NCBI GenBank assembly: GCA_003140935.1
Contig: PLLJ01000055.1
Span: 1 to 39,297, forward strand
DNA length: 39,297 nucleotides
Direction of reading: 5' to 3'
DNA from: Candidatus Omnitrophota bacterium
GTDB taxonomy: Bacteria > Omnitrophota > Omnitrophia > Omnitrophales > Aquincolibacteriaceae
Numbering within the stretch: position 1 is the first letter of the stretch; each line of letters starts with the position of its first letter. The notes under the pieces were generated by a model. That model was not told where the DNA came from and did no database searches. It saw nothing but the letters and a program-made list of their open reading frames with translations. Below are positions 6,338 through 39,297 of the stretch, in pieces. The position numbers were made by a program, and so were the translations under genes.

Positions 6338-6352
6338 CTGCACCAATCGTAA

Positions 6353-6398: not shown

Positions 6399-6521
6399 AT
6401 GTGTCTTATCATGGTGGTTGTATTTCCCCTTCAAAAGGCCTAAAATAATGTCGTAGATAAGAGTGCCGAGTTTTGGGCGGTTACGCTTGGTTTCACCCTA
6501 GCGGCAAATAGGAGGTGATCC

Positions 6522-6710: not shown

Positions 6711-6800
6711 AAGCCGGGTACTAGCGCTTTGTTCCTCAGGAATCACAAAAGCAGCATCAGACGAGGAATGAGTCCCTAACCCCATTTCAGCTCTTCATCC

Positions 6801-6829
6801 TTGTAAAACCTCACCCCATTCAGTAGACT
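6801..6829 (+). promoter_or_regulatory. Candidate prfB promoter giving a near-leaderless mRNA
   Basis: TTGTAA (6801-6806), a 17-base spacer and TAGACT (6824-6829), four of six consensus bases in each box. The expected start, about seven bases after the -10 box, is at 6836-6838, immediately before ATG 6839, which has no visible ribosome site. Confidence 0.4.
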
Positions 6830-6838
6830 ACCCCAACT

Positions 6839-7949: not shown

Positions 7950-7955
7950 AGGGAC

Positions 7956-8012
7956 TCGGGGCTAGGGATTCGTTTTGTGTGGAACGATTCCGAACCCCGA
8001 TGCGCGAATCCC
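7956..8012. repeat. Interlocked inverted repeats between prfB and the SPFH gene
   Basis: GGGATTCG (7965-7972) pairs with CGAATCCC (8005-8012), and TCGGGG (7956-7961) pairs with CCCCGA (7995-8000). The two pairings cross, so they are alternatives or a pseudoknot rather than one hairpin. No T-run follows. Confidence 0.45.
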
Positions 8013-8033
8013 GAAGCGTTAGGAGTAGAAAAA

Positions 8034-14237: not shown

Positions 14238-14826
14238 TCAATTTTGTGGACTCGAACACGGATTTTGCGGCACGGGTGGGTTGAGTGGGGCAGAATTATA
14301 TTTTGCATGTGGTGTCCAGGACTTCCAACAGTGATGAAGATGGATTGTTTCATCGATCATCCGTTTTGTTTAGGATCAGATTTTTCCCAGCGCCTCGACC
14401 GGAAAGTAAAGAAGAATGACCATGACTTGCCACATGTTGCCTCCCGTTCCTATTCGTCGTTAAGCAATGTTGGCGATCGAGTATCCCTATACGTGTTTCT
14501 TCTTTTCGAACAAAATTACAAGGATTTAGCTTGTCTGGGGACAACGTAAGTCTTAAAGTAATTTAATTATAAAAGGATATTTTTTTTCTGACTCAAATGG
14601 AAAATCTAGTCAAAATTCAATCTATCAATATATAGCAATTTATAGCATCGAAAAATTTGACAATAGATTTAAATACGGGTACACTTCTTTTAGAGGTTGG
14701 TCAAACGCGAGAGTAAAATATATGAATGAAGGACGCATGCTTATAAGAATACATGGGCGTTGTGATTACGCTCGTCGTATGCTTTTTACGTGATTTGAAA
14801 AATGAAGTGAGAAGGGAACGTTGCTT
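14238..14826. other. Gene-free leader region before the giant gene
   Basis: No coding sequence of more than about 65 codons is supported here. The second half is AT-rich, with a T8 run near 14580, the direct repeat TATAGCA twice (about 14632-14647), and AATCTAT (14619-14625) inverted as ATAGATT (14663-14669) around the -35 box of the promoter at 14657. The first half (14238-14560) shows no motif that I can name. Confidence 0.5.
14657..14685 (+). promoter_or_regulatory. Sigma70-type promoter of the giant gene
   Basis: Perfect TTGACA (14657-14662), a 17-base spacer and TACACT (14680-14685, four of six consensus bases). The expected transcript start near 14692 gives a leader of about 135 bases. 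The ribosome site AAGGGA (14812-14817) lies nine bases before ATG 14827. Confidence 0.65.
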
Positions 14827-14949
14827 ATGTTAAGTGAGTATCACAGCGAGAACAAACCGTGGGGGATCAAAGCGGTCAGTCTTTTTGTGATCTTCACATT
14901 TCTCGTGACACAAAGTGATATGCGGCTCGGTTTCGCCAACACTATGGCT
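14827..14949 (+). other. Signal peptide of the giant protein
   Basis: Residues 1-41: polar N-region with Lys10 and Lys15, hydrophobic core 16-28 and small residues near 37-41. The N-region is longer than average, but the pattern fits Sec export. No lipobox is present. Confidence 0.75.
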
Positions 14950-17900
14950 CCCGGCGTTCCCGCCGTTCCTGCGCCGGATCCTAAAGCCGACAAAATCCAC
15001 TTCATGCAGAATCTGCAGCAGCAAAAGGATCTTCAAGATCAGACGAAAGAAAATCCTCTTGAAGGAGTTAGTCCCGCGACAGCTGGACAGCAAAATCCTT
15101 TTTCAGGTGATATCCCGCAAGGCCAGACACCCCAGATCTCCACTTCTTTTTTGACCGGTCAAAATCCTTTAGCCGGGAAAACAGCGGAAGGCGCGATCAC
15201 TTCGAAGGATGAGGCGTTGGGGATCGTGACCGTTACCTACAACGATGGCACTTATTTCAAATATAATGATACGAGCAACAAGATCCTTGAGATCTGCGAC
15301 AAAACGCGTCCGGTGCTTGATGACACAGGGAAGATTACCGGCTATGCGCTTGAGACCCGCCAATTTTCGTATGAGACAAGTTCGGAGAACATGAACAGTG
15401 TTTCTTATGTTCGCGTGATCACGGTGGGACAGAATGATCAGCTCAGCACGTATCAAAAGTTCACGACGCTTGCAGATGGCCAGCTGGATAAGCTGATCGA
15501 GACCGGTTATTGGCTCTTGGATGATTCGACACAGCAATATGTCCAATCAGTCTCGGTCCGGTACAGCGGCGATCAAGTGACGGTTTATGACCGGACCGCA
15601 GATCCTTCCTATTATATAGAAAGGACCTATGAACAATTGCCGGCCGGCGAGAACCGTCTTTTGAGGTATCAAAAGATCGAAGGGGCTTTGACGCCCGTTG
15701 ATCTCGAGATCCGGTACGATGATGAAGCCGGTCGCGTGACGGTGATCGACCGATCCCAGGGCGGTGCGTCCGCTCCCACGACCGTTAATTTCTGGGAATA
15801 CGGTCTAGCGAACCAGAACGAACGCGGCGCCCTTCTCGCTGTGGGAGAAATGGACTCCGCAAGCGGTCAGGTTCTTTCCCGGATGGACATTAAAGTGACC
15901 ACCTATCAGATCACCTCGCCCCAGGCCCCGTCCCAACTTCTTATTTTCGAACGTCTCGCCAATGATGGTTTCGGTCGCGTACTTCGCTATCGCGATACCG
16001 GCATTGATCTCGAATATGTTTACGCAGTGGATCCGGCCACCGGTATTGAGGCGATGACCGTCCTGAACTATACGTCGAACACCTTTATCAAGATGAGTTA
16101 TATAGAAGGGGCAGCGCCGGATGCGGCGAGTGGGGTGGTCGATAGTTTCCAGAATATCCTCGCAGCCGGAACATTCACACTGGCTGGAACCGTGCCTACC
16201 TATAAGAACCTCATTGAAAAGGTTCAAGGCGAGTGGGTCGTTGCGGATCCCAGCAGCAGCAAGATCTTCGATGTTTATTCGTCATTCCCGAGCGATGAAT
16301 GGGGGACGCTAGTGCGGAGCCGCGGGCCGCCTGAACCGGGCGCCGCAACTCTCGCGGACTATCGCTACGCCTACGATCCCGCGACCCGTCAAGTCTATGC
16401 CTACGATACCACGAATCTCCGTTACGCCCTTTACGATTGGAAAGATCCCCAAACCCCGCGTCTTTTAGAACAAGGCAATATTGTTTTGGATAATAGCGGC
16501 AATGTCCTCTCCCGCACGGCCACCAGGACCTATAATGCCGAGATCCTCGGTCCCGTGACCGTTCCCGCTACCGAATATGAGACCGCGATCGCTTTTGCCT
16601 CGGCGAATGCCGCGCTTCAGTTGCGTTCCGGTATTGTCGCCGCCAACATTGAAAACCTTTCGATCCTGACAGATCCCAATGATGTAAGCCACTTGACGGT
16701 GGTTCTGCGTCATGGAGATATCCAATATTATTACCGGTATGATGTTCAGGCGAATGTGAGTGTTCTCGATAAGACCCGGACGCCCAATGCCGATGGGAAA
16801 ACTTTTAAGATCGTTATCTATGATGCCCAGGGTCGCGAGACGGGCGAATCCGAGGAGGCCCAGGACGGCACGCTGGCTCCTCAGATGGAGTACCGTTATG
16901 AGACCGCCGGGGAAGTGATCATTATTGACCGGGGCCAGGCGCACACCGTACGGGTTGCGGTTTTGAATGCGGACGGAACGATCGGTCAGACGCTTCGCGC
17001 CGGTTTTTATGACGACGCCAATAAGATCTACTCCCTCCAAGGTCCTGATGATACGGAGGCTAAATGGTATACCTACGGCCCGGAAGGCGGCGACGGCATC
17101 ATGCTGACGAAAGATGATGTTCTGACGACACGTCCCGTTCGGGGTCCGCAGCCGGGAACGGCTGGCAAAGGCTGGCGCCGTCCCGGTGGCGAAAATACAA
17201 CCATAGATGAATTGATCCGTCAACTTAATGCGAAGTTCAAGACTTATCAAGAATGCGCCGAAGAGAGGCTTCGTTCACAGGGAAGCATGACGACCCAGTG
17301 CGAAGATCTGCTTGATTCAGTCTCCGGTCTTCAAAAGAAGATCGAGGATGAACAGTATAACCAGGGTGGCGCTCCGCAATTCGGAGGCAGAGGCGGAAAT
17401 GGGAATCTCGATCTGAACTACCACGGCCCGGCGCCGACGCCGGCTTTTGTCGCGGCTATGGCAGGGCTGGGCAGCGCACCGATCAATGACCCGATGGCGG
17501 CAGTGGTGGATAACGCGGACGGAAGCAAAACGATCTCGCTGAACGGTTTGGTGGAGATCTGGCAGGCGGGTGCGGACGGGTGGGGGAAAGGGAACGATAT
17601 GCTGTCGCAGGTGACGGAAACCGCGACGCATACCACTTGGTATTATGATGCGACGGGCCGAGCGACCAGCGCGAAGGACGGAAGTGGGAACCTTTTAGCG
17701 GAATACTTCTATGACGAGGTCCCGGGCCAGATCCGCGTTTCCCAGTCGAACGGGAACAAATACACTTATACGTACACGGATGCCAAAGATCCTTTTGGTT
17801 CCGCGAAGCTTGTGACCGCCGAATTCGATCGTGGAGGTTCGCATTATGTGGAGACTTATAGCGGAGATCGTTTAAGCGTTCTTGAGAAAGACGGCGTCCG

Positions 17901-20900
17901 TACGGATTACACTTATGATCTTGCTTTGAATCAAGCGGTGCTTACTTCCGCGACAGGGACGCGCATTGTGGATCTTGGCGGGGACGGGAAACTTGGGACC
18001 GCGGATGATTATCTGGTAGGTGGGACCGACACGACACTGCTTGTCACGAAGGACGCCGATCAAAAACTTCAGAGTATTGAAGACCTGACCAACGGGACGA
18101 TCACGACCTTCGGGTATGCCGGCACGCAAGTGTCCATTGCAACGAATTGGACGAGCGGTGGAGTGATCAATGCGGTGACAGTCGATCTTGGCAAGGACGG
18201 AGCGCTGGGGACTTCCGATGACCGCCTTCTATATATAAGCGGGATCTATAACGGGAATCTTTTTGCCGAGACGTTTGACGCAGCCGGACACATACTTTCG
18301 TGGGAAGGCTATGTGGAGGTTGCACGTCGGGATGCCGACGGTCGCCTTTTGCGCTCAGACGGCACGGTCGCCATGACGGAAGAGGAGGCTGCAAAGGACC
18401 TTGCGCATCAATGGATCACTTATACTTGGAAGAGTGTTGAAACGCCCGGGGTGCTCTCGCTTCCGGAAGCAGAGCGCGGGGATGGGCTGGATTGGACAGT
18501 CGCAATCTCCACTTATGTTTTAGAAGGCACGGAGCGTACCCTCGATAACCAAATGACCTACAAACTCGGGGTAGATGATCTTTTCGGGACCGCCGATGAT
18601 CAATTAAGCATTGCTCAGGGTTATGACGCGGCGAATAAAGTTGATTACGAACAGACGTATGATGACAAGGCCCGGGTTGTTCTTTATAGGAACCTGGATA
18701 CCGGCGATGAACTTCGTTATGTCTATGATGATACGGCAAAGAAGGTCACGATCACCTCGAGCGGCAACTACTTCAAACAGGTTTATAAATTTGACGACAA
18801 GCATCCGGGTGACTTTTCGTTCGCGCGTCTTGTCGAGGAGGAACGCGACGGGATCAAGCGGCTCTGGGACGAGGATGAACAGCTGATCTCGACCGTTGAT
18901 ATCGAAACGGGTCTGGAGGTTAAGGAAAAGAGCGGCCACTTCGTAACTTCGGTGACGGATAAGGATGGTATCACGACATTCTTTCAAGACGGTGTGATCC
19001 TCTCGGTCGTCAAGCGCGACGGGACCGTGCTCAGGACTTACACGCATATTGTGGATCCCGCGACGGGGGAACTTCGGGACGTAAATTTTGAAGGCAAGGA
19101 TACGCTCGAAAAGATCACGATCTGTCTTTCCGGGGAAACTTCCGGCTGCTCGAATTACCGGGTGATCTACGAGAACGGGATCATGCTGGAATATCAGATG
19201 AAGGATAACCGGCCGGTACTTGTCTGGGTGGGCGATCCCTTGGGTATCGAATTCACGCAGCAGATCGATGAAGCGACCGGCTCCATGACGGTCCGTTACA
19301 ACGACGGACGTACGAATTTTTATTCTCAGATCGCTGGCTTCTACGAGATCCAACGCTCGATCAATCTCCGGGGCGAGGTCGAGGACTACTGTTACTACGG
19401 CTCCGCGATGGGAGCGGCCTGCAAGAGCGTTGACCTTGAGGCCTCCAAAAAGAAGATCCAGGGCGCGATCGATGCGTTACCCGCTTCCGGGGCGGACACC
19501 GGCACCACGAAATTCACAGTCCCGGACCTGACGCCCGAGAATCCCGGTCTTGATTACTCGATCCGTCATGACGGCACGATTGTTTTTTACGCGACGCGCA
19601 GCAAAACGGAATGGCAGGAAACGCCAAGTGCTTTATACACGATCGGGAAATTCGATCATGTGACGATCTCCCAGTTGGACGCGTCCAGTAAAGTGACGCA
19701 AGCGATCGAATTGCGGGCGGACGGCACACTCGCGAACATTACAACATACGACACGGACGGCCGGGTCACAAATTCCTACAGTTACAATCCCGACGGCAAG
19801 AAGATCTTGAGCCACAGTATTTACACGTATTATTCGGCGGATACCCAGTCAAAAGACTTCCGTCTTTTAAAGCTTGTCGAGACCTACAGCATCGGGGATC
19901 TGAATCTGAGCGCGATCAAGGATGTGACGGGCCCTCTGGGCGCTCTTGAGAGTCGCGTTCATTATCTCCCGCTTCACGCGGAGGCTCAGAAATTCACGAA
20001 GGAGGAGAACAAGCCCGATGTGACGGAAGCGACTTTCGGCCGTTTTGATTATTTAGGGCTTGGCCTCGTGGATTACACGGAGAATTTCCGCCGTCCTCTT
20101 GTGGCGGGCGGGGATCCGGTTTTCTTATCGAGCGTCCAACAGCAGTATTCTGTTTTTCAACTTGTCAGAAGCGTGACTTATAAGAATCTGACAAGCACGA
20201 AGCCTTGCGGGGACGGTTTCTCGGGCTGCGAGATCACGAGCCTTGATGAATTCACGTATTTGCCGGGGACCCAGGACCTTGATTTCACGAAACGGTACTG
20301 GGTTTCGGGCAATGATATTAATAACAAAGTGCTTCAAAGCGTGTTTCGCACGGAGCAGGTGGATGATTACACGAGCGTGACGCATGATTTCGGGAAAGAT
20401 TTCGTCGAAGACACCGCTCCCGGTGGTGACGACAAATTTACAGTGCAAACCTCGGTGGCAGTGGGGAATGATCTGGATGGAGACACCACGCGCGAGGAAT
20501 GGGGCACAGAGGTCATTGAGTACGATGACATTTCCGACTTCAGTTATTGCCACAAAGACGGTTACACAGAAGCGTTCCGTCTCGGGCTTTTCACGGACCG
20601 TCAGAGCCATACGTTCCAGTATGATGTGAACGGTGACGGGTCGGTGACGCGCACGAAATCATTCAAGTTCGTGCGCGGCGTGGAAACTTCCGAGGTCAGT
20701 TACAGCGAATCCCAAAGACGCCTCGGCTGGGAGGACGGCTATGAGGGGACGCTGGCCGATTCACTGCTCGGGGACTTGACTGCCGCCGAACTCGAGAATT
20801 TCAAAGGCCAAGAATTCTCTTTCACCCGCACCTGGAAATTCGGTTTTGACAAAGAGGAAGAAGACCGCATCTTCCGTTCCGAGAGTTATTCGGTCACGTC

Positions 20901-23900
20901 CCGCGATGATAAATCCACGCGCACGGTTTCTCGCGATGTGGTGACCGATCTTTTGACGTACACAAATCAAAGAAGGATCGATCCAGCGCATCAGACGGCT
21001 GAGGAGGCCGCCGTTCGTCAGGAGCTTTTGGGCACCGGCGCTCTCGCCATTACCTCGGATAAGGACATGTTCGAATCCTGGAGTTATGCGGGCGGTTTTG
21101 ATACGGAGCAGTTACTCCTGGATCACAGTTTCTCGCTGGATGTGTACGGGGACGGAACGGTGACCCGCACCAAGAATTTCAAAGTGGACGGGGGCAGTGA
21201 GACGGGTGAGATCAATTACAGCGAGACCGAAGACATCGCGCACAACACGATCTCTTATGACGGTGTTCATACGGTATGGGAGCTCATGTTGAGCTCTGAT
21301 CTCTGGACCAACCCGAACTGGGCCGAAGAGCATGTGAACCGGACCCAGACCTGGAGCGTGTCCTTTGAGGTGGATTCCGCGGAGCGCCAGGCGCGTCATG
21401 TCCCTCCTTACGAAGGGGAGTCTTATCAGCTGACCTCTGCGGACGGGAAGATCACCCGTAGCGCCAATTGGGACGCCATCAAGGGGGAGTCCTTCTATAA
21501 TTACGTGGAGCAGGTGAAGATCCCTTACGACACGATCACGGTCAACGGTATCCATGTCGGGGAAAGCCTCTTGGGGGACGTGAAAGGCGACAAGAACTGG
21601 AGCCCGAAGAGCATTCTTTACATGACGTCCTCCCGTGAAGCGTTCAATGTCAGGGACCGCTTCATCGATTCAGAATCCTATCAAGTGACCTCCCGCGACC
21701 GCAAAGAAACGCGGACGATGACGGTGAACCGTAATGATCCGGATGGTCCGCGCGTGACGTATTCGTCATCCGTTCGTGCGACGCGTGCCGAGATGCAAGC
21801 CCTGATGGATGATCCGAAGACGACGATCTTGCCGGCCGAGCGCGAAATGTTCATGAGCGTTTTTAACGATCCCGCATTTGAACACAATCCTTTTTATCTC
21901 GTGACCGGATCCAGCGATGCCTTTAATGTTCCTCAGCTCCAGAAACGCGCGCGTGTGATCACAAGCAAAGCCTATCAAGTGACCTCGCGGGACGGCGATG
22001 TGACGCATTCTCTTGTGATCGACGACCATGTTCCGGAAGGTTATCCGATCGCGACCTATCAGCGTCAAGAGCGTATGCTGAAAGCTGACATTGAAAAGGT
22101 CCTGGCGGATCCTGCGAACACATTGGTCCCTCCTGGAACGACGATGCTCGATTCCGGGAAGACGCTTGCCGAGACCCTTCAGGCCGCTCTCAATAGCAAT
22201 CCGTTTGCGACCTTTTATATGACCACCTCGAACTATTATTATCCGGACGGGTCGACGACCCCGAAAGCAAGTTCTTTTGGATATTCCTGGAGCTCGCGGG
22301 ATGGGAACAAGAGTTACAACATTGGGATCAATGAAAAAGCTCCGGACGGTCCCGAAATGACTTTTACTCAAACGCAGAAGGTGAGTCATCAAGCGGCGCT
22401 TGGGATCGCGAACCAGATCGGAGACGCTGCGAAAAAAGCGGATGCTCTTGCGGCGCTCAATGGCAATCCGATTGCCTCGATCAGCATGTCACTGACGGGA
22501 ATGGGGGACCCGGTCTACCAATGGACAAGTTCTCTTGACCCCAACCTGAGTTTTTCGATGAGCGTGAATAATTCGGTGCCCGTGGGTGTGGCTAATACGC
22601 CGACCGGTACGGAGATCACTTTCAGTCGGAATATTCGTGTGAGTCGCTCGGAAGTCGTCTCGAAGATCGGTTTGATCCCGAGTGACGCGGTCAAAGCCGA
22701 TGAACTCGCGCGGCTCGACGCGTGCACCAATTGTGTTTATTTCACGAAACAGGAAGGGATCACGAGTGATCCGGACGCAAGTTACCAGTGGTCCGCACTC
22801 GGGGATCCGAACAATGCCTTTACTCTGACGCTGAATTCTCATGTGCCGGTCGGGATCCCGAATGCAAGCGGTGTTTATCCGAGCATGAAGACCGAAGCAA
22901 GTGTTAGTACGAACACCCGTGTTTCGCGCAGTGTCGCGTTGGGTTATATCAACGCGGACGCGAACGGCGAGTGGATCGCGAATCCAGACGACCGCGCCGC
23001 GGCCCTTGCGGCGTACAATGCGGCGGTCGCGCTCGAGAGCTCTTTTTATAAGGTCCAATCGGGGATCGCCGATCCGGTCTTGCAGTGGACCGTTGGCAGT
23101 GATCCAAACACAAGTTATTCCCTCCTTCTGAAGGACAACATCGCCGCCGGATGGCACAGCGCCATTTTTAGTTTTAACAGGAGGGTGAGTCGTGATTCGG
23201 TTGCAGCGCAATGCAGTAATTTGCCGCCGACGGATTCCAGACGGATGGCGTTCGAAGCGGCGATTATGGTGCCTGCGGATGCGTACTATATGTCGATGGG
23301 TGATCGCGGACCGACGTATCAGTGGACCGATAAGGCAAATAAGAACCTCAGCTACAGCCTTTCGCTTGACGAGAAGTTCCCGGCCGGTAATGCGTTCCAA
23401 GTTCCGCCGGTCATCACTTTCACGACCAACTTCCGCGTCAGCGTCGCGGAAGCCTTGGCCGATTTTGATCTTATTCAGGATCCCGCGAGGCGCGACGAAG
23501 CTAAGAGCAAGCTCACGGGCACTGTCCCGGTTTATCGGGCGCTCAGTGATGGAGTTTCCGCGATCGACGGGATCGACCCGGTCTATCAATTCGCGGATGC
23601 CAGCGATGCCGATACGAATTATACCGTTTCACTTCGCAGTGGCGTGCCGGTCGGTGATCCGCCAACCTATACCGGCCGTGAGGCGACGTTCGGGATCTCG
23701 AAACGCGTGAACCAGCGTGAGATCGAACAATGGCTTAATGATCAGGCGATCACGCTGGTCGCGCAAGGGATAACACCCGCCGAGGCACTCCAGAATGTCG
23801 AAATTTTTTATTTATCCAAAGGTAGCGCGGCGGAAGCGGGACAATATCAATGGACGAGTTTTCAGGATCCGAACAAGAGTTACAGTCTGCAGGTCCGCGA

Positions 23901-32900: not shown

Positions 32901-35900
32901 CTCTGGGAAAGAGGCGGTACTGACCGCTGACAAGCGGCAGCAGTATATGGACGCTCTGCAGCGCGTCGGTTCTGCAACGGATTTCACGGTCACCAAAACG
33001 GGCCGGGATGTGAACTACAGCTGGATCAGTGCCGACAAAACACAAGTGTATACGCTTTCCAAGACCTTCGCGAAGGTGGAAAACCAGACAGAAGTCGTTG
33101 GGAAATGGGACTTCAATATTCAAGTGCGCGTCCGTCGCAGCGTGGTAGAAAAAGCCGCCTTGAGTTTGCCCCCCGGCTTGGAAAAAGACCAGTATCTTGT
33201 CGGGATACAAAATACGGCCAGCTGGACCAAATTCACCATGGCGATTAGCGGGAATGATGTGAACTATAAATGGACAAACCGCAGCGGTGGGGTGACCTAC
33301 AGCTTGACCAACAGCAAGCAGATCAAAGAGTTTTCGGATCCGCAGGGTAACATTACTCGCCAGCTCGGAGACAATTGGAGTTTTTCGAGTTTTAACCGCG
33401 TGGTGAAATCGTACGTTGACAATTTTGTTGCACAGATCGAAGACCCCGATCAAAAAACGCAATACCTGCAAGCCCTTCAAGACACGGACGCGTCTACGAT
33501 TTACACCCGGACCATCAGTGGGGACAGCACGAGTTACCGTTGGACCGGATTGGATGATGCGACGACTTACTTGCTTGGTTTTTCGAAACAGCTGACATTG
33601 CAGGTCAAGATGGAGGCAGGCGTTCCGGCCCGCGACGCGCAAGGCAATATTCTTTACGAAACGGATGTTCAAGGTAATTATTTGTATGACACGTCGGAAA
33701 AATGGTATTTCCGGACCGAGGTCCTGGTGCTTGCCGATGAAGTCGCGAATCATGCGGCGCAACTTCAAAACGAGGTTTTGAGAGAGCAATACGATCTGGC
33801 CTTTAACGAACGCACGGGCGCTACATTCTTTACGCGCAGTCAATCCGGTAAGGACACGACTTATTTATGGAATGCATATCTTGATACGCCGAGTCTCAAA
33901 GGACAAACCGCCAGCTATACGTTGAGCATGACGTCGGAAAAAATCACAGCGGCTGACGGAACGGTCAGCGATATCGACCGCTGGAATTTCCGGGCGGATT
34001 TCTTGGTTGATATCAGCGTTGTGCGTTACAGGACACAATTTTTAGACGACGATTCAAAAGCCGCTCTGGAAGCCGTTTTGGCGGAATTGGATGCCAAAGA
34101 CCCGACTCACGGGACGAAATTCACAAGAACGACGACAGGTATGGAAGATTCTTACACCTGGCAAAGTTTTGATCACGTAAAAAATTACAGTCTGAATGTT
34201 TCGCGTTTGAGTGAGACTTCGGAGGAAGGCGCCCGCTGGTCTTTCAATGAGCAAATGAACGTGCCCAAGATTGCCGTGGAAGGATATTCAAGCCTTCTTG
34301 AAACGCAATATCAGGCGGCTTATGAAGCCGCTTTGGCGGATATTTGTGCGGCGGGGGATACGAGTTGCCTGATGACCACATTTACCATGACGAAGAGCGG
34401 GGAGAACATTTCGTTCAACTGGAAGAGCAAAGACGGCTCCAAGGCCTATTCGCTCGCCCGTAGTATCGAACGGACGCTTGAAACGGAAACGATAGATCCT
34501 GCCACCGGCAAGGTCACGGCCCGCACTTATAATCAACGGCAGAAATGGAATTTTACGACTAATATCGCGGTCACGAAAGATGAGGCGGCGGGATTTGTGG
34601 ATGCACTCGAAACGGATTCGCTCAGAAATCAGTACAACCAGGCGTTAGGCGCCGCATCCGTGGATGCCACCACGGTCTTTACCAAAACCTTAAGCGGTGA
34701 GAGCCTCAGCTACAGCTGGACGGCGCTGGACGGTATCACGACCCACCGGCTCGCCCGTTCGAAACAAACCATCTACGATCCTGAAACCGAATGGGTTAAC
34801 GGCGTCGAACAAGTGAAGCGTGATGCCCAGGGTAATGTTATTTACAAATCCGCTTATGTTGAGCAATGGAAATGGAATTTCAGTTCCGAGCAGCTCGTCC
34901 TTCGCAGTGAAGTCTTAAGCGGTGCGAATAAAATGAAATTAGAAACGCAAGAATTGCGCGACCATTATCAGTCCGTTTTGGACGAAACACCTTTGACGGT
35001 CGCCTTTACCCGCTCCACAAGCGGCGACGATGTTTCGTATTCCTGGCAGAGTACGGACAAGGCCCGGACTTTCACGCTAGGGCAAACCCTCGTAAAAGTT
35101 GAAACCGGGAAGGATGCGGACGGGAATCCCATTTACGGACAATCGGTCGGTCGCTGGTCTTTTACGGAGCAGGTTGCAGTATTGAAATCCTTGGTCGAAC
35201 CGCAAATCGCCTTGCTGACAGACAACGATCAGGCGACTTTGATGCAGGCGGCGCTCGGGGATGTGAATGCCTTCACGACCTTTACGCGTTCGATCAGCGG
35301 GGCCGACTCGAGCTATAGCTGGCGCTCTGTGGACGATGCCCGTACTTATACGATCGCCTCCGAATCCTTGAAAGATGAACACGGCGTTCCGATGGGCGTG
35401 AAATCCACTTTCAGCACCCAGTCTCAAGTGAAGAAAATTGAAGTCGAGAATCATGCGGCGGATATGGAGGCAGAATACCGCTCGCAATATACGAACGCAT
35501 TAGCCGATACCAATAACGCGACGGTTTTTACAAAGACGATTACGGGTCGTGAAATAAGCTATAGCTGGAAGTCCGCACTCGAAGGCAAAACCTACACATT
35601 GGCGCAGGCCATAGAAAAAATTTATATCCCCGAACTGAATACCGACGGGACCGTGAAAACCGACGTACAAGGCCAAGTGGTTTACAAGGTCAAAGACGGC
35701 ACGACGGAATTAGATTATACGGAGGCCTTAAAGTGGACCTTCAGCGAGCAGGCCATTGTCCTGAAATCGGAAGCCGCGTCCAAAACAGACAATCTGGAGA
35801 CCTGGGAACTCCGGAATCAGTACAGCCTGGCGCTCAATGATACGGACGAGGCCACGACCTTCACGCGGACCTTGAGCGGCTTGAGCATTACTTACAGCTG

Positions 35901-38900
35901 GAAATCGGCGTTCGTCGGCAAGACTTACAGCCTCTCGAAAGAACACGTGAAGGTGCTTACGGACGAACAGCGGAATGCGGCCGGCCAAGTGATCTCACAG
36001 ACATTTACGGACAGCGAGAAATGGTCGTTCAGCGAACAAGTCTATGTGTCGCCGGCCGAAGTTGGAAGCCATGTGGATCAGTTGAACAATATTGACCTGA
36101 AAACGCAGTACGAGGCAGCTCTTACCGATGTCGCTCTTGGAACCTACTTTACACGAATGACCAGCGGCGCGGATATCAGCTACAGCTGGAAATCCAAGGA
36201 CGGTGTTCAGTCCTATGCGTTGACTGAAGAGCGGGTCATCCAAACTCCGGCCACCGAGTCCACGCCGCCGGTTTATTCCGATGCGAATGCAAAATGGAAT
36301 TTCAGCGCGCAGTTCCGCGTTCAACGAATTGAAGTTGCCGGTCATGAAGGTGATCTGGACAAAGATTCCCAAGCTCAATATATATCCGTGCTGCCGCCGG
36401 CGACCGATACCGAGACCGTCTTCACCAAGACGGTGAGTGGTGACGGCATCACGTATTCATGGAAATCTCAAGACCAGGGAGTGACCTATAGCCTGAACCG
36501 TTCCGCGGAAAAAGTCGTCGTTCCGGAAACCGAAATTGTCGACGGCACAGAACGTGTCAAAACGGATGCTTCCGGAAATACGATCTACAGAACAGACGCG
36601 AACGGGAATTTGCTCACGGAAAACGCCAGAAAATGGAGTTTCAGCGAGCAATCGATTGTGGCCCGGAGCATGGTCGAAGCCAATATTGCGAATCTTCCGA
36701 CCGATTTATTGAGGACCCAGGTCACGGCCGCCCTTGCAAACGCGGCTTCCGGCATGGCCACCTTCAGCCGTTCGCTCAGCGGCAAAAATATCAGTTTTAC
36801 CTGGAAGTCTTTGAGCAACGGGAAAACTTACAGCGTGAACGGAACGGCCACCAAGGTATTAACGGTCGGAACCGTGATCCCGGCTGCGGATAACGTTTGG
36901 GATGAGTCGGCTTTGAAATGGAGTTTTAGCGAGGAATCCCTTATTTTGAAAAGCGAAGTGTCCGGTCATCTGGCCGATCTCCCGCAGGAACAGCAGCAAC
37001 AATACACGGATGCCCTTGCCGACACAGATGACACCTCGACCTACTTTACAAAGACAATAGGCGGTAATCAGATCAGTTATAGCTGGAGCTCGAAGGATGG
37101 GGTTAAATCGTATGTGCTGACCAAGGAAACCCTGAAAGACGGGAGCGGCGCGGTCACCATTCAGGACAGATGGACCATGAACGAACAGATCCGCGTCAAA
37201 AAGATCGAAGTCGAAAACCATACGGCGGATCTTGATCCCGACCAAGCGGTCCAATACCAGCTTGCACTTTCAGATACCAATGATGCGACGATTTATACCA
37301 AGAACCTGAGCGGCAATGAGGTCAGCTATAGCTGGAAAAATTCAGAAGGAGCCATCACTTATAACCTGACGCGAGGCGTGAAAAAGATTTCGAACGCTGA
37401 CGGCAGTTTGGCGGAGACCCAGACCAAGTGGACTTTTTCTAAACAGGCCTCTGTCGCGAAGGGCCTCGTCAGCATCTATGTCGACCGCTTGGAATCGCAG
37501 GCTGTCAAAGATCAATACGCGGCGGCCCTTGCGGACACGGATGCGGCGACGGAATACACGCTGAGTGTGAGCGGAACCGACATCAGTTTTTCGTGGAAAC
37601 CGATTTCAGGGAGTACCACTTACACGCTTTCAAAAGCAGCGACTCAGGTGCGCCAGGCCGACGGGAGTTGGATTGCAGGAGAAAAGTGGAGCTTCAGCGC
37701 ACAAGCGCTTGTCCTGCGTTCGGAGGTGGAATCGAACGCTAATAATCTCGAGACCGATGAAATGCGTACTCAGTATGCGGCAGCGCTCAGCGCCCAACAT
37801 GCTCCGGTTTCGACTCTTTTTACTAAATCGGTTTCCGGAAACGAGATCTCTTACAGCTGGGCGGATCAAGACGGCATCACCTCCTACAATCTCTCCAAGG
37901 CCGTGACGCCGTCCACCGGCGCCGAGAGGTGGTCGTTTGTTTCCACCGCGTTGGTACTGCTTGCCGAGATCCAAGGACATGTCGACGATCTTGCGATCAA
38001 TGATCCGGCTGATGCGGATGCCGCAACGTTGAGGCAGCAATATAATGATGCGCTGCTCGATTTCAATTCCAGGACGGAATTTTCGAGAACCATCAGCGGC
38101 ACTGAAATATCTTATGCCTGGAAGAGCGCGGACAAAAAACAATCCTACGCGCTTTCCAAGACGGTCACGCAAGAACTCCAGCAGGACCGGACTTATCTCG
38201 AAAAAACCAAATGGAGTTTTAGCACCCAGCTGGTGCTGAGCAAAGACGCGCTCATGAGTTCCAATCCCGCTCTGGGAAGTGCGCTCCAAGCCCAGTACGG
38301 AGCGGCTTTGGCGGATACGGTGTCCGCGACCGAATTCACAGTCTCGACTTCGGGACGGAATATCAGTTATTCCTGGAAGAACACAAACGGGGAAAAGACT
38401 TATACCCTGGCATCTTCAGTAGCCAAAACGTTGCTCACTGAAACCAACGGCGTGAAGACCTACCAGGAAGGGACGAAGTGGAATTTCACGGAACAGATCG
38501 CCGTGCCGGCTTCCGAAGTATCGGGTTCATTATCCGGACTTTCGGCCGATCAAAAAGCCCAAGCCGACGCAGCGCTCGCCGCCGCGAATTCAGCGACCGC
38601 TTATTCGCGTTCGACGAGCGGGACCGATGTCACTTATAGTTGGAAAAATCCGACCGGTCGACAAGCTTACAGTCTCTCGAAGACTCTTGTGCAGGAACAG
38701 CAGACGAGCGGCGATTATCTTGCCAAAGAAAAATGGAGTTTCACGGTCCAAACCGTGGTGGCCCAAGCAGTCTTCTCCGATCAGATTTCGGAACTTGCAA
38801 ACCAAACACTGAAAGATCAACTCACCGCCGCGTTATCTGATATTAACAGCTTTACGGAATTTACGCTCTCCGCCAGCGGGACTGACGAAAATTACGGCTG

Positions 38901-39297
38901 GCGGTCTGCTGACGGCGCTCGCAATTACACACTATCGAAGTCTGTATTTCAGGAACTGCAGGCGGATGGAACTTATCTTGCAAAAGACAAATGGAGTTTC
39001 TCGGCTCAAGAATCCGTTGTCATCGGTCTGGTGCAAGCGAATTTGGCGGAGCTTCCGGAAAACCAACGGAATCAGGCGGATGCCGCGCTTGCCTCGGGTG
39101 CTTATGATCCTCTCGCCGGGTTTACAGTATCGACCAGCGGGACAGAGATCAGTTACAGCTGGAAGTCTGCGGATGAAAAAAAGAATTACTCGTTAAGCAA
39201 GACGGAAAACGCGATCCTTCAAGCAGATAATTCCGTTATTTGGTCTCCGAAGTGGAGTTTTTCGGTTCGCCAGGACGTTTCTCAGGCGGTGGTGCAA
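14827..39297 (+). CDS. Giant secreted repeat protein, at least 8,157 residues, 3'-incomplete
   Basis: One reading frame runs from ATG 14827 to the last base of the window (24,471 bases, exactly 8,157 codons); I read it through and found no stop. Residues 1-41 form a signal peptide: a polar, basic N-region, a hydrophobic core (AVSLFVIFTFLVT, 16-28) and a likely cleavage near LGFA or NTMA. A Gln/Pro-rich linker follows to about residue 120. Then come YD-like beta repeats, a transitional block with GDG motifs, and about 55 modules built on a SY-x-W core, all described as separate entries. No enzyme domain is visible so far. Cysteine is very rare (16 in 8,157) and mostly in close pairs, fitting an exported protein. 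The gene has its own promoter and ribosome site. A cell-surface fibre, adhesin or sheath-like role is an inference; the C terminus that would show anchoring or enzymatic domains lies outside the window. Confidence 0.95.
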   Translation, partial: MLSEYHSENKPWGIKAVSLFVIFTFLVTQSDMRLGFANTMAPGVPAVPAPDPKADKIHFMQNLQQQKDLQDQTKENPLEGVSPATAGQQNPFSGDIPQGQTPQISTSFLTGQNPLAGKTAEGAITSKDEALGIVTVTYNDGTYFKYNDTSNKILEICDKTRPVLDDTGKITGYALETRQFSYETSSENMNSVSYVRVITVGQNDQLSTYQKFTTLADGQLDKLIETGYWLLDDSTQQYVQSVSVRYSGDQVTVYDRTADPSYYIERTYEQLPAGENRLLRYQKIEGALTPVDLEIRYDDEAGRVTVIDRSQGGASAPTTVNFWEYGLANQNERGALLAVGEMDSASGQVLSRMDIKVTTYQITSPQAPSQLLIFERLANDGFGRVLRYRDTGIDLEYVYAVDPATGIEAMTVLNYTSNTFIKMSYIEGAAPDAASGVVDSFQNILAAGTFTLAGTVPTYKNLIEKVQGEWVVADPSSSKIFDVYSSFPSDEWGTLVRSRGPPEPGAATLADYRYAYDPATRQVYAYDTTNLRYALYDWKDPQTPRLLEQGNIVLDNSGNVLSRTATRTYNAEILGPVTVPATEYETAIAFASANAALQLRSGIVAANIENLSILTDPNDVSHLTVVLRHGDIQYYYRYDVQANVSVLDKTRTPNADGKTFKIVIYDAQGRETGESEEAQDGTLAPQMEYRYETAGEVIIIDRGQAHTVRVAVLNADGTIGQTLRAGFYDDANKIYSLQGPDDTEAKWYTYGPEGGDGIMLTKDDVLTTRPVRGPQPGTAGKGWRRPGGENTTIDELIRQLNAKFKTYQECAEERLRSQGSMTTQCEDLLDSVSGLQKKIEDEQYNQGGAPQFGGRGGNGNLDLNYHGPAPTPAFVAAMAGLGSAPINDPMAAVVDNADGSKTISLNGLVEIWQAGADGWGKGNDMLSQVTETATHTTWYYDATGRATSAKDGSGNLLAEYFYDEVPGQIRVSQSNGNKYTYTYTDAKDPFGSAKLVTAEFDRGGSHYVETYSGDRLSVLEKDGVRTDYTYDLALNQAVLTSATGTRIVDLGGDGKLGTADDYLVGGTDTTLLVTKDADQKLQSIEDLTNGTITTFGYAGTQVSIATNWTSGGVINAVTVDLGKDGALGTSDDRLLYISGIYNGNLFAETFDAAGHILSWEGYVEVARRDADGRLLRSDGTVAMTEEEAAKDLAHQWITYTWKSVETPGVLSLPEAERGDGLDWTVAISTYVLEGTERTLDNQMTYKLGVDDLFGTADDQLSIAQGYDAANKVDYEQTYDDKARVVLYRNLDTGDELRYVYDDTAKKVTITSSGNYFKQVYKFDDKHPGDFSFARLVEEERDGIKRLWDEDEQLISTVDIETGLEVKEKSGHFVTSVTDKDGITTFFQDGVILSVVKRDGTVLRTYTHIVDPATGELRDVNFEGKDTLEKITICLSGETSGCSNYRVIYENGIMLEYQMKDNRPVLVWVGDPLGIEFTQQIDEATGSMTVRYNDGRTNFYSQIAGFYEIQRSINLRGEVEDYCYYGSAMGAACKSVDLEASKKKIQGAIDALPASGADTGTTKFTVPDLTPENPGLDYSIRHDGTIVFYATRSKTEWQETPSALYTIGKFDHVTISQLDASSKVTQAIELRADGTLANITTYDTDGRVTNSYSYNPDGKKILSHSIYTYYSADTQSKDFRLLKLVETYSIGDLNLSAIKDVTGPLGALESRVHYLPLHAEAQKFTKEENKPDVTEATFGRFDYLGLGLVDYTENFRRPLVAGGDPVFLSSVQQQYSVFQLVRSVTYKNLTSTKPCGDGFSGCEITSLDEFTYLPGTQDLDFTKRYWVSGNDINNKVLQSVFRTEQVDDYTSVTHDFGKDFVEDTAPGGDDKFTVQTSVAVGNDLDGDTTREEWGTEVIEYDDISDFSYCHKDGYTEAFRLGLFTDRQSHTFQYDVNGDGSVTRTKSFKFVRGVETSEVSYSESQRRLGWEDGYEGTLADSLLGDLTAAELENFKGQEFSFTRTWKFGFDKEEEDRIFRSESYSVTSRDDKSTRTVSRDVVTDLLTYTNQRRIDPAHQTAEEAAVRQELLGTGALAITSDKDMFESWSYAGGFDTEQLLLDHSFSLDVYGDGTVTRTKNFKVDGGSETGEINYSETEDIAHNTISYDGVHTVWELMLSSDLWTNPNWAEEHVNRTQTWSVSFEVDSAERQARHVPPYEGESYQLTSADGKITRSANWDAIKGESFYNYVEQVKIPYDTITVNGIHVGESLLGDVKGDKNWSPKSILYMTSSREAFNVRDRFIDSESYQVTSRDRKETRTMTVNRNDPDGPRVTYSSSVRATRAEMQALMDDPKTTILPAEREMFMSVFNDPAFEHNPFYLVTGSSDAFNVPQLQKRARVITSKAYQVTSRDGDVTHSLVIDDHVPEGYPIATYQRQERMLKADIEKVLADPANTLVPPGTTMLDSGKTLAETLQAALNSNPFATFYMTTSNYYYPDGSTTPKASSFGYSWSSRDGNKSYNIGINEKAPDGPEMTFTQTQKVSHQAALGIANQIGDAAKKADALAALNGNPIASISMSLTGMGDPVYQWTSSLDPNLSFSMSVNNSVPVGVANTPTGTEITFSRNIRVSRSEVVSKIGLIPSDAVKADELARLDACTNCVYFTKQEGITSDPDASYQWSALGDPNNAFTLTLNSHVPVGIPNASGVYPSMKTEASVSTNTRVSRSVALGYINADANGEWIANPDDRAAALAAYNAAVALESSFYKVQSGIADPVLQWTVGSDPNTSYSLLLKDNIAAGWHSAIFSFNRRVSRDSVAAQCSNLPPTDSRRMAFEAAIMVPADAYYMSMGDRGPTYQWTDKANKNLSYSLSLDEKFPAGNAFQVPPVITFTTNFRVSVAEALADFDLIQDPARRDEAKSKLTGTVPVYRALSDGVSAIDGIDPVYQFADASDADTNYTVSLRSGVPVGDPPTYTGREATFGISKRVNQREIEQWLNDQAITLVAQGITPAEALQNVEIFYLSKGSAAEAGQYQWTSFQDPNKSYSLQVREDLKQKTLTATTQVSSATVAAELAAAIAAGTITADDSRKQKIEAAIADGLTFFKTTGDKGPNYQWASDSNKNMSYSLGVDTLVPVGDASADGTYANHRTELNITVSVRSSIEAVLNQLNLIADVANREEARAQLLKKGTAVSRTVTDGASAQDGVDPVYQFGDTGNPDVNYSIAVRSGLPSGIPDINGVYTSFHSEATWNISTRVGKADVQQWLSQQGQEWLAKQGFQLINNGVDLATAFEDTSLYYLSQAGTKDSGQYQWSNISDPNTSFSLQARDTFKQVTVNATTQVSSETVTAELTAALAAGTITVSDSRKASIENAIANGKIFSRSTGDQGPNYQWSSETDKNRSYNLAVDKNFPVGLEDPQTQRYMSFRTELSITTSDRVSAEYVALQAGLIKDAANVAEARAKLALPGVAVSRTVTDGVMATDGVEPVYQFADPQDQDTSYSLTVRTLVPVGDPPVNSGTEVTWGISRRVDPAAALEDLQKYEIDPARIAAFEAAMAQGDAVYLSQAGSDDKSRQYQWTHRYDAADPGASNINYSLTVKDFDSEAIFTVSTQVSLETVTAQIAILDQDFAARKAEIDTEKAKPSATPEQIAALDAALAVLIADRDTKRTLIQAAIADGKIFSRQETWGADPSYSWASNSNVNVNYSLGLNTKVPVGLRDPQTQQYTSFRTEISFTRSERTSLAVIMGQANGIADPKKKAEALAAIGVTDAAGGAFYKASTDGKDPVYQWTNPKNLDESWNLSMNNHVPNGTEANPLPPSTEMIFTHSVRLSKSDVAAFVALIADPAKKTEAEAALDTGRDFYRSQAGDDDPVYQWTNKNNSGISYSVTENNHVPVGLPDANGNYTQFTTEFVFAHNERTSLQEMLTLIPLIVDTTKQSQAYLALFDGEIYSRAQAGNDDPSYQWTGLKDQNVSYTLSKNPRLDTVSFSRTKRVSQAQVALERDTLTTNYNTDKTALEAQIAALSDGDEKAALVASLDRLTSEYAARLSRINAALADAKGNVFYMSQAGNDDPSYQWSSAANKNLNYSLSTNTKVPVGETGTAGAGVRTELTFNRTERSSIAEAQAKLALIRDAGDRTEAQAALDAQAATAGSAIYRSLTDTESVLDFVDYNYQFTDVTNPDKSYSITVNSGAPGGTVEAVWSISLRIGRAQVVTARDYITANYSAARTDLEALIVAQSADPAKVALLQQSLADLTANYQAKLDDINAALADGDSFVMSQAGSNDPNRQYQWTSKTNANISYSLNVKESWQEATFTRTVRVSAEDVAKQFAYLKDTGDSRYTNLQMALIDSRLFYKSQSGNDDPSFQWSSETNRNLSYSMSLNTKIGVGIPNALGIYPSTKTEVTFTRNERVTVAEAQSKLALVGDPDYRTAATAALEQAGVVVYRALTDGESAADFVDPVYQFSNVSNSDINYSLAIKSGIPVGELNPDGSYPSTRTEAVWNISERISRDSVRQNILADATGEWISDTAKRNDALAALADGEIFSKSYAGPKDNVTYQWTSRTNPNMSYSLLVKDKANPVTGNNWHEATFNRTRRASREEVAARYAYLQGTGDSRYAGLEAAMADADGTLFYMSQAGNDDPSFQWASITDHNLNYSLSVNSKVPVGEAGTPAAGFKTEVTFTKSSRESIEQAMKQAQLIVDPSDRAEALAALAVFGTVVSRTLSDGESASDGIDPVYQFTDVANPDKSYSMAVRSGVPVGNPPANTGIEATWNVTERISKTQVETARGYITSDYNAAKAAIDALIAAPDTDPAQVAVLQQTLAVLTANYSAKLASINAAIDDGDVFTMLYAGENDRVTGVTYQWTSRTNQNINYSIQVKENWREANFNRNERVSRETVEHELTRLAPTDSRYATLQAEIADGQIFYMSRSGNDQVSYQWASGANKNMNYGLSLTLVNGSIQLTVSSTERMSVEFVRAQTGLIRDVSDKADIDTALTQEGLVVYRALSDGESSLDGNAVNPTYTFTDTANSDRNYTITVNSTAPDGPEATINISTRIARTLVEQHIRTDGANEWIQDPVKRSQALISLWDADIFYMSQAGSDDAPQYQWSSLSDPDVNYSMQVRDDWHQSLFSKNERVPISELETRLLELTGIYQQRKQEIEAQIAEITAQDPQDPRILNLQNALALLDGNYGTQNTQLRAAIDDGEMVSKSQAGNDDPSYQWSSKTDHNTSYGLSMNTHVPVGMADANGNYATFRTEFSVAVTQRVSIHDIDTNSDAYKLIQDPNQQTPAAQAAAEVGIMVYKAVTDGKDPVYQWTSSLNTAVSYSLSFDAHVPVGLAGQEIKVANFTRTEKISRAAMLDLLPAIKNPSEKTNAIAAIADGESFAVSQRGPVDNLNYSWSSLSNALVSYSISLDTHVVLGREATFKKSTRTSLEDVEALTVPTKNVDVSQNVTDERFSTTKTIRELLLGNLINDPNWAQAMPQLIEGVGADGTLDWTGYAITSADGLITRTVILNLELGPDGQYVDVDPSTPGIDRMQYIETRKISKDTEVLPGHTALEILGSHVAETDWPVTRVSISLTDFSDPQRVLTNDFYNLNAAAVPGQFNVAIIRSPTDIQFVTQVDVSEVVGAVKLIRDDEMRLAANRAATDPLAVFYKVEGDNKQTVYQWTNSNDPNVSYSINIDLKAPAGDEGFFTQEATFVTTTRVSRESVAKVYDDQIALVLLSVIDATLRTNLIAAASMDAFKDLINNAADLPAELKDVIAAWNTADPEDMTAFTSVQSSLADPVLQAKALSGTATISPEELKMLMEGLKENTNVATTFNRSLTIESHPGLSLDETSVIQYSWTSLDGIKSYSLNYGNVAIMESDGTFTYDREASFSESQRFAQISEDYLTQLCLIPYIASAVADGSAGVTMEQLQAAANLTEFKALVAGSGLGDDIKNAANALTEDDWTQKIKSDLAIPRHMTTLTRTDYNAFKAALALTSEDTLFTMTRIAGGYEYGWEGLDDKEQVTEYRLSERVDEVAVSRDTNGNDVYAQDEAWTFRSETKVSEASVSGKEAVLTADKRQQYMDALQRVGSATDFTVTKTGRDVNYSWISADKTQVYTLSKTFAKVENQTEVVGKWDFNIQVRVRRSVVEKAALSLPPGLEKDQYLVGIQNTASWTKFTMAISGNDVNYKWTNRSGGVTYSLTNSKQIKEFSDPQGNITRQLGDNWSFSSFNRVVKSYVDNFVAQIEDPDQKTQYLQALQDTDASTIYTRTISGDSTSYRWTGLDDATTYLLGFSKQLTLQVKMEAGVPARDAQGNILYETDVQGNYLYDTSEKWYFRTEVLVLADEVANHAAQLQNEVLREQYDLAFNERTGATFFTRSQSGKDTTYLWNAYLDTPSLKGQTASYTLSMTSEKITAADGTVSDIDRWNFRADFLVDISVVRYRTQFLDDDSKAALEAVLAELDAKDPTHGTKFTRTTTGMEDSYTWQSFDHVKNYSLNVSRLSETSEEGARWSFNEQMNVPKIAVEGYSSLLETQYQAAYEAALADICAAGDTSCLMTTFTMTKSGENISFNWKSKDGSKAYSLARSIERTLETETIDPATGKVTARTYNQRQKWNFTTNIAVTKDEAAGFVDALETDSLRNQYNQALGAASVDATTVFTKTLSGESLSYSWTALDGITTHRLARSKQTIYDPETEWVNGVEQVKRDAQGNVIYKSAYVEQWKWNFSSEQLVLRSEVLSGANKMKLETQELRDHYQSVLDETPLTVAFTRSTSGDDVSYSWQSTDKARTFTLGQTLVKVETGKDADGNPIYGQSVGRWSFTEQVAVLKSLVEPQIALLTDNDQATLMQAALGDVNAFTTFTRSISGADSSYSWRSVDDARTYTIASESLKDEHGVPMGVKSTFSTQSQVKKIEVENHAADMEAEYRSQYTNALADTNNATVFTKTITGREISYSWKSALEGKTYTLAQAIEKIYIPELNTDGTVKTDVQGQVVYKVKDGTTELDYTEALKWTFSEQAIVLKSEAASKTDNLETWELRNQYSLALNDTDEATTFTRTLSGLSITYSWKSAFVGKTYSLSKEHVKVLTDEQRNAAGQVISQTFTDSEKWSFSEQVYVSPAEVGSHVDQLNNIDLKTQYEAALTDVALGTYFTRMTSGADISYSWKSKDGVQSYALTEERVIQTPATESTPPVYSDANAKWNFSAQFRVQRIEVAGHEGDLDKDSQAQYISVLPPATDTETVFTKTVSGDGITYSWKSQDQGVTYSLNRSAEKVVVPETEIVDGTERVKTDASGNTIYRTDANGNLLTENARKWSFSEQSIVARSMVEANIANLPTDLLRTQVTAALANAASGMATFSRSLSGKNISFTWKSLSNGKTYSVNGTATKVLTVGTVIPAADNVWDESALKWSFSEESLILKSEVSGHLADLPQEQQQQYTDALADTDDTSTYFTKTIGGNQISYSWSSKDGVKSYVLTKETLKDGSGAVTIQDRWTMNEQIRVKKIEVENHTADLDPDQAVQYQLALSDTNDATIYTKNLSGNEVSYSWKNSEGAITYNLTRGVKKISNADGSLAETQTKWTFSKQASVAKGLVSIYVDRLESQAVKDQYAAALADTDAATEYTLSVSGTDISFSWKPISGSTTYTLSKAATQVRQADGSWIAGEKWSFSAQALVLRSEVESNANNLETDEMRTQYAAALSAQHAPVSTLFTKSVSGNEISYSWADQDGITSYNLSKAVTPSTGAERWSFVSTALVLLAEIQGHVDDLAINDPADADAATLRQQYNDALLDFNSRTEFSRTISGTEISYAWKSADKKQSYALSKTVTQELQQDRTYLEKTKWSFSTQLVLSKDALMSSNPALGSALQAQYGAALADTVSATEFTVSTSGRNISYSWKNTNGEKTYTLASSVAKTLLTETNGVKTYQEGTKWNFTEQIAVPASEVSGSLSGLSADQKAQADAALAAANSATAYSRSTSGTDVTYSWKNPTGRQAYSLSKTLVQEQQTSGDYLAKEKWSFTVQTVVAQAVFSDQISELANQTLKDQLTAALSDINSFTEFTLSASGTDENYGWRSADGARNYTLSKSVFQELQADGTYLAKDKWSFSAQESVVIGLVQANLAELPENQRNQADAALASGAYDPLAGFTVSTSGTEISYSWKSADEKKNYSLSKTENAILQADNSVIWSPKWSFSVRQDVSQAVVQ
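15190..17200 (+). repeat. First YD/RHS-like beta-repeat block (giant protein)
   Basis: About residues 122-792. Repeated short strands carry Tyr-Asp and GR/GK turns: VTYNDGTYFKYNDT, IRYDDEAGRVTVIDRS, YRYDVQANVSVLDK, VIYDAQGRETGES, YRYETAGEVIIIDRG. This is the spacing and composition of YD (RHS-type) repeats, which build beta-cage shells, but the copies are divergent and no RHS core motif is present. Confidence 0.6.
17206..17403 (+). other. Helix and Gly-rich linker (giant protein)
   Basis: About residues 794-859: a charged helical stretch with two Cys (IDELIRQLNAKFKTYQEC, later QCEDLLDSVSGLQKKIED), then QYNQGGAPQFGGRGGNGN. It separates the two YD-like blocks and probably acts as a spacer. Confidence 0.6.
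17407..20100 (+). repeat. Second YD-like block with DG..GT.DD motifs (giant protein)
   Basis: About residues 861-1758. YD-like units (WYYDATGRATSAKDGSGN, YTYDLALNQAV, YDDKARVVLYRN, YVYDDTAKKVTIT, TTYDTDGRVTNSYSYN). Three acidic loops, DLGGDGKLGTADD (17971), DLGKDGALGTSDD (18184) and a weaker GVDDLFGTADD (about 18568), resemble calcium-binding loops. Close Cys pairs lie at 19123/19147 and 19390/19420. Confidence 0.6.
20461..22290 (+). repeat. Transitional TSRD/GDG repeat block (giant protein)
   Basis: Cores SYSVTSRD (20881), SYQLTSADG (21421), SYQVTSRDRKETRT (21673), AYQVTSRDG (21970) and YSWSSRDGNKSYNI (22279) lead stepwise into the YQW modules. A longer unit recurs 172 residues apart: DVNGDGSVTRTKSFK (20623) and DVYGDGTVTRTKNFK (21139), each followed by a Y-S-E segment. 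Confidence 0.65.
22276..31020 (+). repeat. Type-A module array with three-module higher-order repeat (giant protein)
   Basis: About 32 modules of 80-110 residues. The core is a strand F-x-x-S-x-x-G....SYQW(S/T)S, then NxNxSYSLS, then VPVG, then TE(V/L)TFxRxxRVS, then a helix ending in AALADG. Seven copies of an ordered triad (A1-A2-A3) are visible. A1 has KNLSYSLS...KVPVG; A2 has VSRTVTDG...DPVYQF and W(N/G)IS; A3 has QYQWTS and a V-(R/K)-(D/E) segment in place of VPVG. Triads start at 23317, 24085, 24913, 26959, 27832, 28666 and 29548. Ala-rich helical inserts occur at about 25570-25760, 26740-26920, 27370-27550, 29095-29270 and 30145-30350. Confidence 0.85.
31021..32265 (+). repeat. Divergent junction between type-A and type-B arrays (giant protein)
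   Basis: About residues 5399-5813. It holds one clear type-A core (VYQWTNSNDPNVSYSI, about 31732), one degenerate TSRD-like core (YAITSADGLITRT, about 31234) and a long helical, Ala/Leu-rich segment (about 31870-32180). The order looks like a breakpoint where older module types are kept between two expanded arrays. Confidence 0.55.
32266..39297 (+). repeat. Type-B module array (giant protein), continuing past the window
   Basis: Two early degenerate cores (32266, 32737) are followed by 23 modules with cores from 33016 to 39157, on average 279 bases (93 residues) apart. Each module reads FT(R/K)T-x-SG, xxISYSWKS, then YSLSK, a variable acidic loop, KWSFSEQ-x-x-V, then a helix with L-R-x-Q-Y-x-x-AL-A-D-T. 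The final visible bases encode WSPKWSFS, so the array is not finished at 39297. Confidence 0.88.

What the first reader, a model, noticed from the sequence alone, without database searches (positions are those of the whole stretch)
14827..39297. Single open frame of at least 8,157 codons encoding a secreted giant repeat protein
The frame begins with a promoter, a ribosome site and a signal peptide and stays open to the last base. No stop was seen in any of the 8,157 codons, although much of the sequence is degenerate repeat, so it is under selection as one protein. Omnitrophota are known to encode extremely long proteins, and this fits that pattern. No known enzyme or adhesin domain is visible, so the repeat modules themselves may be an undescribed family.
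Basis: partly seen in the sequence, partly recalled or inferred. Interest (0 to 1): 0.9.

Follow-up and report, generated by a model that had tools for sequence, protein, structure and literature searches.

The report
Half of a giant Omnitrophota surface protein
The window holds the first 8,157 amino acids of a giant exported protein from an uncultured Omnitrophota bacterium, built largely of 60 copies of a repeat not found in the family or structure databases searched and kept in the same order in a related genus; giant proteins were already known in this phylum, but I found no earlier description of this repeat or of the gene switch it shares with related giant genes.

Summary
In detail: one frame runs from the ATG at 14827 to the last base (8,157 codons, no stop; 224-355 expected by chance). 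It is not a chimera or a lucky frame: an independent MAG of another genus carries the same protein, collinear over 8,039 codons at 66% identity, with differences concentrated at third codon positions. The window is the whole contig, so the gene is cut by the contig end. About 60 tandem ~86-residue modules (aa ~2271-8157) match no Pfam, NCBIfam or PDB sequence family. Three modules fold confidently in AlphaFold2 (pLDDT 94.9; four strands plus two helices each) without a convincing PDB or viral structural match. The modules were found in 7 of 384 sampled Omnitrophota genomes, all of this family, and their order is fixed. A conserved promoter with TATAGCA tandem repeats and a conserved signal peptide precede this and related giant genes. 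Complete relatives (12,700-18,700 aa) continue into discoidin domains, membrane helices, a helicase- or SecA-type ATPase and an HExxH motif. Contig C38 of the same genome carries a C-terminal fragment, probably this gene's end (join not shown). Giant proteins are known in Omnitrophota; function (contact, adhesion or predation) is inferred.

The parts
14621..14647 (+). Operator-like tandem repeat (TATAGCA units, 10-bp period) just upstream of the promoter
   Evidence: TATAGCAATTTATAGCA exact at 14631-14647, preceded by a degenerate copy at 14621; conserved in a 5-species alignment; within 3 mismatches upstream of 10 of 27 giant-gene starts against 0 for the reversed pattern; 15 sites in the own genome against 4 for the reversed control
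14657..14685 (+). Promoter: -35 TTGACA, 17-nt spacer, -10 TACACT
   Evidence: TTGACA identical in 5 species, -10 TAYACT/TATAAT; TTGACA-type promoter in 19 of 27 giant-gene upstream regions; consensus scan alone not above shuffles
14810..14816 (+). Ribosome-binding site AGAAGGG, 10 nt before the ATG
   Evidence: read directly
14827..39297 (+). Giant open frame, 8,157 codons, cut by the contig end
14827..14940 (+). Conserved signal peptide, aa 1-38 (YHSE.KPW..K..SLFVI.TFLVTQ.D..L.FA)
   Evidence: alignment A1 of 21 homologues; profile found in most genomes of the family, in 11 order members outside it, and only weakly elsewhere in the phylum
14941..17466 (+). N-terminal strand-rich region, aa 39-880, including a helical hairpin around aa 790-845
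   Evidence: 6-row alignment A3; AlphaFold2 of low overall confidence, pLDDT 52, mostly strands
17467..21636 (+). Second non-modular strand-rich region with YD-like motifs, aa 881-2270
   Evidence: translation; conserved in G001C59 at about 42-51% identity up to aa ~2170; no family match
21637..39297 (+). Array of 60 modules of about 86 residues, the last one cut by the contig end; interrupted at aa ~5427-5621 and by shorter inserts up to aa ~5956
   Evidence: profile search; collinearity with other genomes
37036..37800 (+). The three modules predicted in 3D (aa 7404-7658)
   Evidence: mean pLDDT 94.9, pTM 0.83, four strands and two helices per module; no PDB or viral match at E<=0.001

Best explanation
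The window carries the N-terminal part of a giant exported protein. Shown: one intact frame conserved between genera; a conserved promoter and signal peptide; about 60 modules that keep their order, of which three were predicted, each as four strands plus two helices. Inferred: the protein is exported by the Sec route, the modules stack into a long rod outside the cytoplasmic membrane, and the chain ends, as in relatives, with membrane helices, a helicase- or SecA-type ATPase and an HExxH (zincin-like) domain. In the own genome the likely tail is contig C38:1-18915 (6,305 codons), giving at least 14,462 codons; the join is not shown. Most likely role (inferred): a surface stalk or scaffold used in contact with other cells or particles, as proposed for other giant Omnitrophota proteins.
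For: Frame and selection. Modules collinear with G016 (55 of 59 steps; mean 68% identity across species against a mean best paralogue identity of 44.5% within the protein). Confident module fold. Signal peptide; no other membrane helix by hydropathy. Complete relatives with a stop: G001C59 gene 2 (18,667 aa) and G002C21 (12,698 codons), with DUF4214 and discoidin domains in the first, membrane helices, weak ResIII/DEAD matches in the first and HExxH in both. A related frame in G001, open at its contig start (9,521 codons), has a clear SecA motor (PDB SecA 2.3e-49; Pfam SecA_DEAD 7e-41 and discoidin). The own genome has one strong N-terminal match of this family and one C-terminal match (C38, 7.8e-125), both at contig ends.
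Against: No sequence evidence shows the function. The C-terminal halves of relatives differ strongly, so this gene's own tail could differ. A tandem second gene, as in G001, could own C38. The ATPase in C38 is recognised only from motifs read by eye and weak similarity to G002C21; Pfam finds nothing in C38. Some related frames are broken: G002:C65 has two overlapping frames and G002:C69 a stop.
Confidence: 0.65

Rival explanations
1. The protein is of the polymorphic-toxin or effector-delivery type: a conserved N-terminal export and rod part with an exchangeable C-terminal part that carries the activity and is released by the HExxH domain.
For: The N-terminal half is conserved in order while C-terminal halves differ between genomes; YD-like regions read by eye; small C-terminal remnants lie between tandem genes in G001 and in G016:C11; the last ~320 residues of the tandem G001 genes are 85% identical, suggesting exchange.
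Against: No toxin domain and no RHS/YD family found; the extreme C-terminus is conserved rather than variable.
Confidence: 0.15
2. A scaffold that stays within the cell envelope, with the N-terminal helix as an uncleaved anchor.
For: The signal peptide could be an uncleaved anchor; ATPase domains in the C-terminal part of relatives would normally need cytoplasmic ATP (general knowledge).
Against: A cleavage-site-like LAFA motif is conserved; discoidin domains in relatives are usually extracellular (general knowledge).
Confidence: 0.12
3. An assembly chimera or a non-functional open frame.
For: The gene sits at a contig end and its tail is missing from the contig.
Against: Collinear homologue over 8,039 codons in an independent genome with codon-position bias; module-by-module orthology.
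Confidence: 0.01

Closest known systems
Giant ORFs of Omnitrophota (Seymour et al. 2023, PMC10066038), including the 39,678-aa protein of Ca. Velamenicoccus archaeovorus
   Same: same phylum, extreme length, few recognisable domains, membrane helices; discoidin domains reported in the class Omnitrophia and found here in a complete relative
   Different: that paper calls most giant ORFs of Velamenicoccia poorly conserved; here the N-terminal 8,000 residues are collinear between genera, with a repeat family and a promoter for which I found no description; homology to the V. archaeovorus protein was not tested
SecA motor (Pfam PF07517)
   Same: a SecA-type motor lies inside the related 9,521-codon frame of G001
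   Different: embedded in a giant protein and 28% identical to the separate SecA gene at window 8919-11600; absent from the window frame and not found by Pfam in C38
Large surface proteins of other bacteria, for example Giant1-5 of Apilactobacillus (PMC12863079, abstract only)
   Same: very long extracellular bacterial proteins
   Different: no sequence comparison was made; here individual modules keep separate identities between genera

Membership tests
Omnitrophota giant ORFs (>20 kb) | single ORF longer than 20 kb in an Omnitrophota genome | tested here: met
   24,471 bases open and still unfinished; named relatives are Omnitrophota
Omnitrophota giant ORFs (>20 kb) | multiple membrane helices and large extracellular domains such as discoidin (described for the class Omnitrophia) | tested here: inconclusive
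   absent from the window fragment; membrane helices and discoidin present in complete relatives
Homologue of the V. archaeovorus 39,678-aa protein | sequence homology | not tested
   that record was not compared; the one genome-contig scan returned 5 loci, none named as it
SecA | SecA DEAD, preprotein-binding and P-loop domains in the window frame | tested here: not met
   no Pfam match in the window protein; met in the related G001 frame
YD/RHS repeat proteins | Pfam or NCBIfam RHS/YD match | tested here: not met
   the resemblance was read by eye only
WIF or PKD domain proteins | at least one stretch passing on its own | tested here: not met
   whole-protein scores only, no passing stretch; of 56 modules one weak for WIF, none for PKD

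The most novel reading that the evidence does not exclude
A lineage-specific giant-protein system with its own control and export marks: a shared promoter with TATAGCA tandem repeats, a dedicated signal peptide, a new rod-forming module kept in fixed order, and exchangeable C-terminal parts carrying a motor ATPase, an HExxH protease-like domain and a common VA.AA tail that also ends two other large secreted proteins of the genome.
Probability: 0.35. Interest if true: 0.8.

Novelty: new variant of a known kind. Interest (0 to 1): 0.6.

Why it matters
Giant Omnitrophota proteins are described as poorly conserved and hard to interpret. Here one can be compared module by module across genera, its repeat has a confident predicted fold, and a shared promoter element offers a way to find which genes are switched on with it. 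That makes the role of these proteins testable by proteomics, imaging and expression of a few modules.

Tried and rejected
Self-BLAST of the whole protein returned only the self match, so modules were found by profile iteration instead. A first alignment of overlapping four-module stretches fell out of register and was replaced by disjoint triples, a few rows of which are still shifted. AlphaFold2 of the N-terminal region gave low confidence, so no fold search was made on it. The tail of G016 found nothing in the own genome, nor did the ATPase region of G001 gene 2. tmRNA tag: AEKTSWNERAVGPVAVPMPLALPFAA shares only a hydrophobic-AA ending with the VA.AA tails, too little to claim a degron. Chimera and chance open frame rejected. 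Another very long frame of the genome (C5, 26,995 codons) reads N in most of the places sampled, so it is not claimed as intact and was not pursued.

Full report
Observation. The stop-to-stop frame is 14806-39297 and the ATG at 14827 gives 8,157 codons without a stop. The start is supported by homologues that begin at the equivalent codon. By chance 224 to 355 stops would be expected, and the other five frames hold 90 to 428. The window is the complete contig G000:C3, so the gene is cut by the contig end.

One protein under selection. Aligned codon by codon, the frame matches G016:C13 (another genus of the family) over 8,039 codons at 66% amino-acid identity and G001:C3 (same genus) over 7,821 codons at 59%. 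Differences per codon position are 0.25/0.20/0.53 and 0.30/0.25/0.59, and the third-position excess holds in every 1,000-codon block, being weakest after aa 7000. This excludes a chimera within the stretch.

Anatomy. The first 38 residues form a signal peptide conserved in 21 homologues. Two strand-rich non-modular regions follow, to about aa 2270; the first was predicted with low confidence from six sequences, the second is judged from its sequence only. From aa ~2271 to the end lie 60 modules of about 86 residues, with inserts between aa ~5427 and ~5956. Three of them were predicted at mean pLDDT 94.9 and pTM 0.83, each with four strands and two helices. Fold searches returned no match at E<=0.001 in the PDB or viral library; no library of predicted cellular proteins was available. 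Sequence searches gave no family. The profile was found in 7 of 384 sampled Omnitrophota genomes, all in the own family.

Fixed module order. For almost the whole array, the best match of module n in the window is module n in G016 (55 of 59 collinear steps, mean 68% identity), while the best paralogue within the protein averages 44.5%. The array is therefore older than the split of these genera and has not been reshuffled since; I regard this as unusual for a tandem array, from general knowledge.

Promoter. An alignment of five species shows TTGACA, a spacer (17 nt in the window) and TAYACT or TATAAT, preceded by TATAGCA repeats at a 10-bp period. In 27 giant-gene upstream regions, 10 carry the repeat within 3 mismatches against 0 for the reversed pattern, and in eight of the ten it lies 186-205 nt before the start codon. 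In the own genome 15 sites were found against 4 for the reversed control. Two of the sites lie upstream of large secreted proteins of 2,611 and 3,701 aa that end in QSVAQAA and SAVGKAA; the giant frames read to their stops end in similar tails. A shared regulon and a common function of the tail are hypotheses.

The missing end. Complete relatives are G001C59 gene 2 (18,667 aa) and G002C21 (12,698 codons). The first continues with DUF4214 and discoidin domains; both have membrane helices and HExxH, and the first has weak helicase-type ATPase matches. A 9,521-codon frame at the start of G001:C59 carries a clear SecA motor. In the own genome, C38:1-18915 is a 6,305-codon frame open at the contig start and ending in the same kind of tail. 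One strong N-terminal match and one C-terminal match of this family in the genome make a join likely but do not show it; C38 and the C-terminal fragment of G016 share only parts.

Literature. Giant ORFs over 20 kb are reported for many Omnitrophota, with discoidin domains in the class Omnitrophia and proposed roles in adhesion or predation (PMC10066038). Preprints are not held in the library, so an earlier description of this repeat or of SecA fused to giant proteins cannot be excluded. The function given here is inferred from that literature and from the anatomy.

Noticed in passing
window 6900-7949: prfB with a start that looks like the classic RF2 programmed frameshift site (AGGGGGTATCTTTGAC, near 6905-6920).
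   Followed up: partly
window 4263-5569: Tyrosine integrase whose end overlaps tRNA-His on the opposite strand, with a helix-turn-helix-like ORF at 6041-6337: possible integrated element.
   Followed up: no
window 2675-3706: YhcG-type PDDEXK nuclease protein (PF06250, PF17761).
   Followed up: no
L107 (G000:C45:27394-35226 minus) and L108 (G000:C54:4264-15366 plus): Two large secreted proteins (2,611 and 3,701 aa) with IQDAHA/IQDAHS-type N-termini, upstream TATAGCA repeats and VA.AA-like tails.
   Followed up: partly
L061-L065 (G000:C5:68061-149045 minus): Another very long frame (26,995 codons) with an IQDAHA-type N-terminus; much of it reads N, so its intactness is unknown.
   Followed up: no
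L087 and nearby (G005:C47:74879-90160): A 39,033-codon frame in a same-genus genome with SecA-like and C-terminal-domain matches; not checked for N.
   Followed up: no
G001:C59:30607-32394: Short remnants of the giant C-terminus between two tandem giant genes whose last ~320 residues are 85% identical, suggesting recombination.
   Followed up: partly
L070, L071 and L084 (G002:C65); L073 (G002:C69): Related giant frames that are interrupted: two overlapping frames of 7,410 and 7,188 codons, and a stop between 2,051- and 1,943-codon frames.
   Followed up: partly
L111 (G000:C25:20431-20828): tmRNA with tag peptide AEKTSWNERAVGPVAVPMPLALPFAA.
   Followed up: yes
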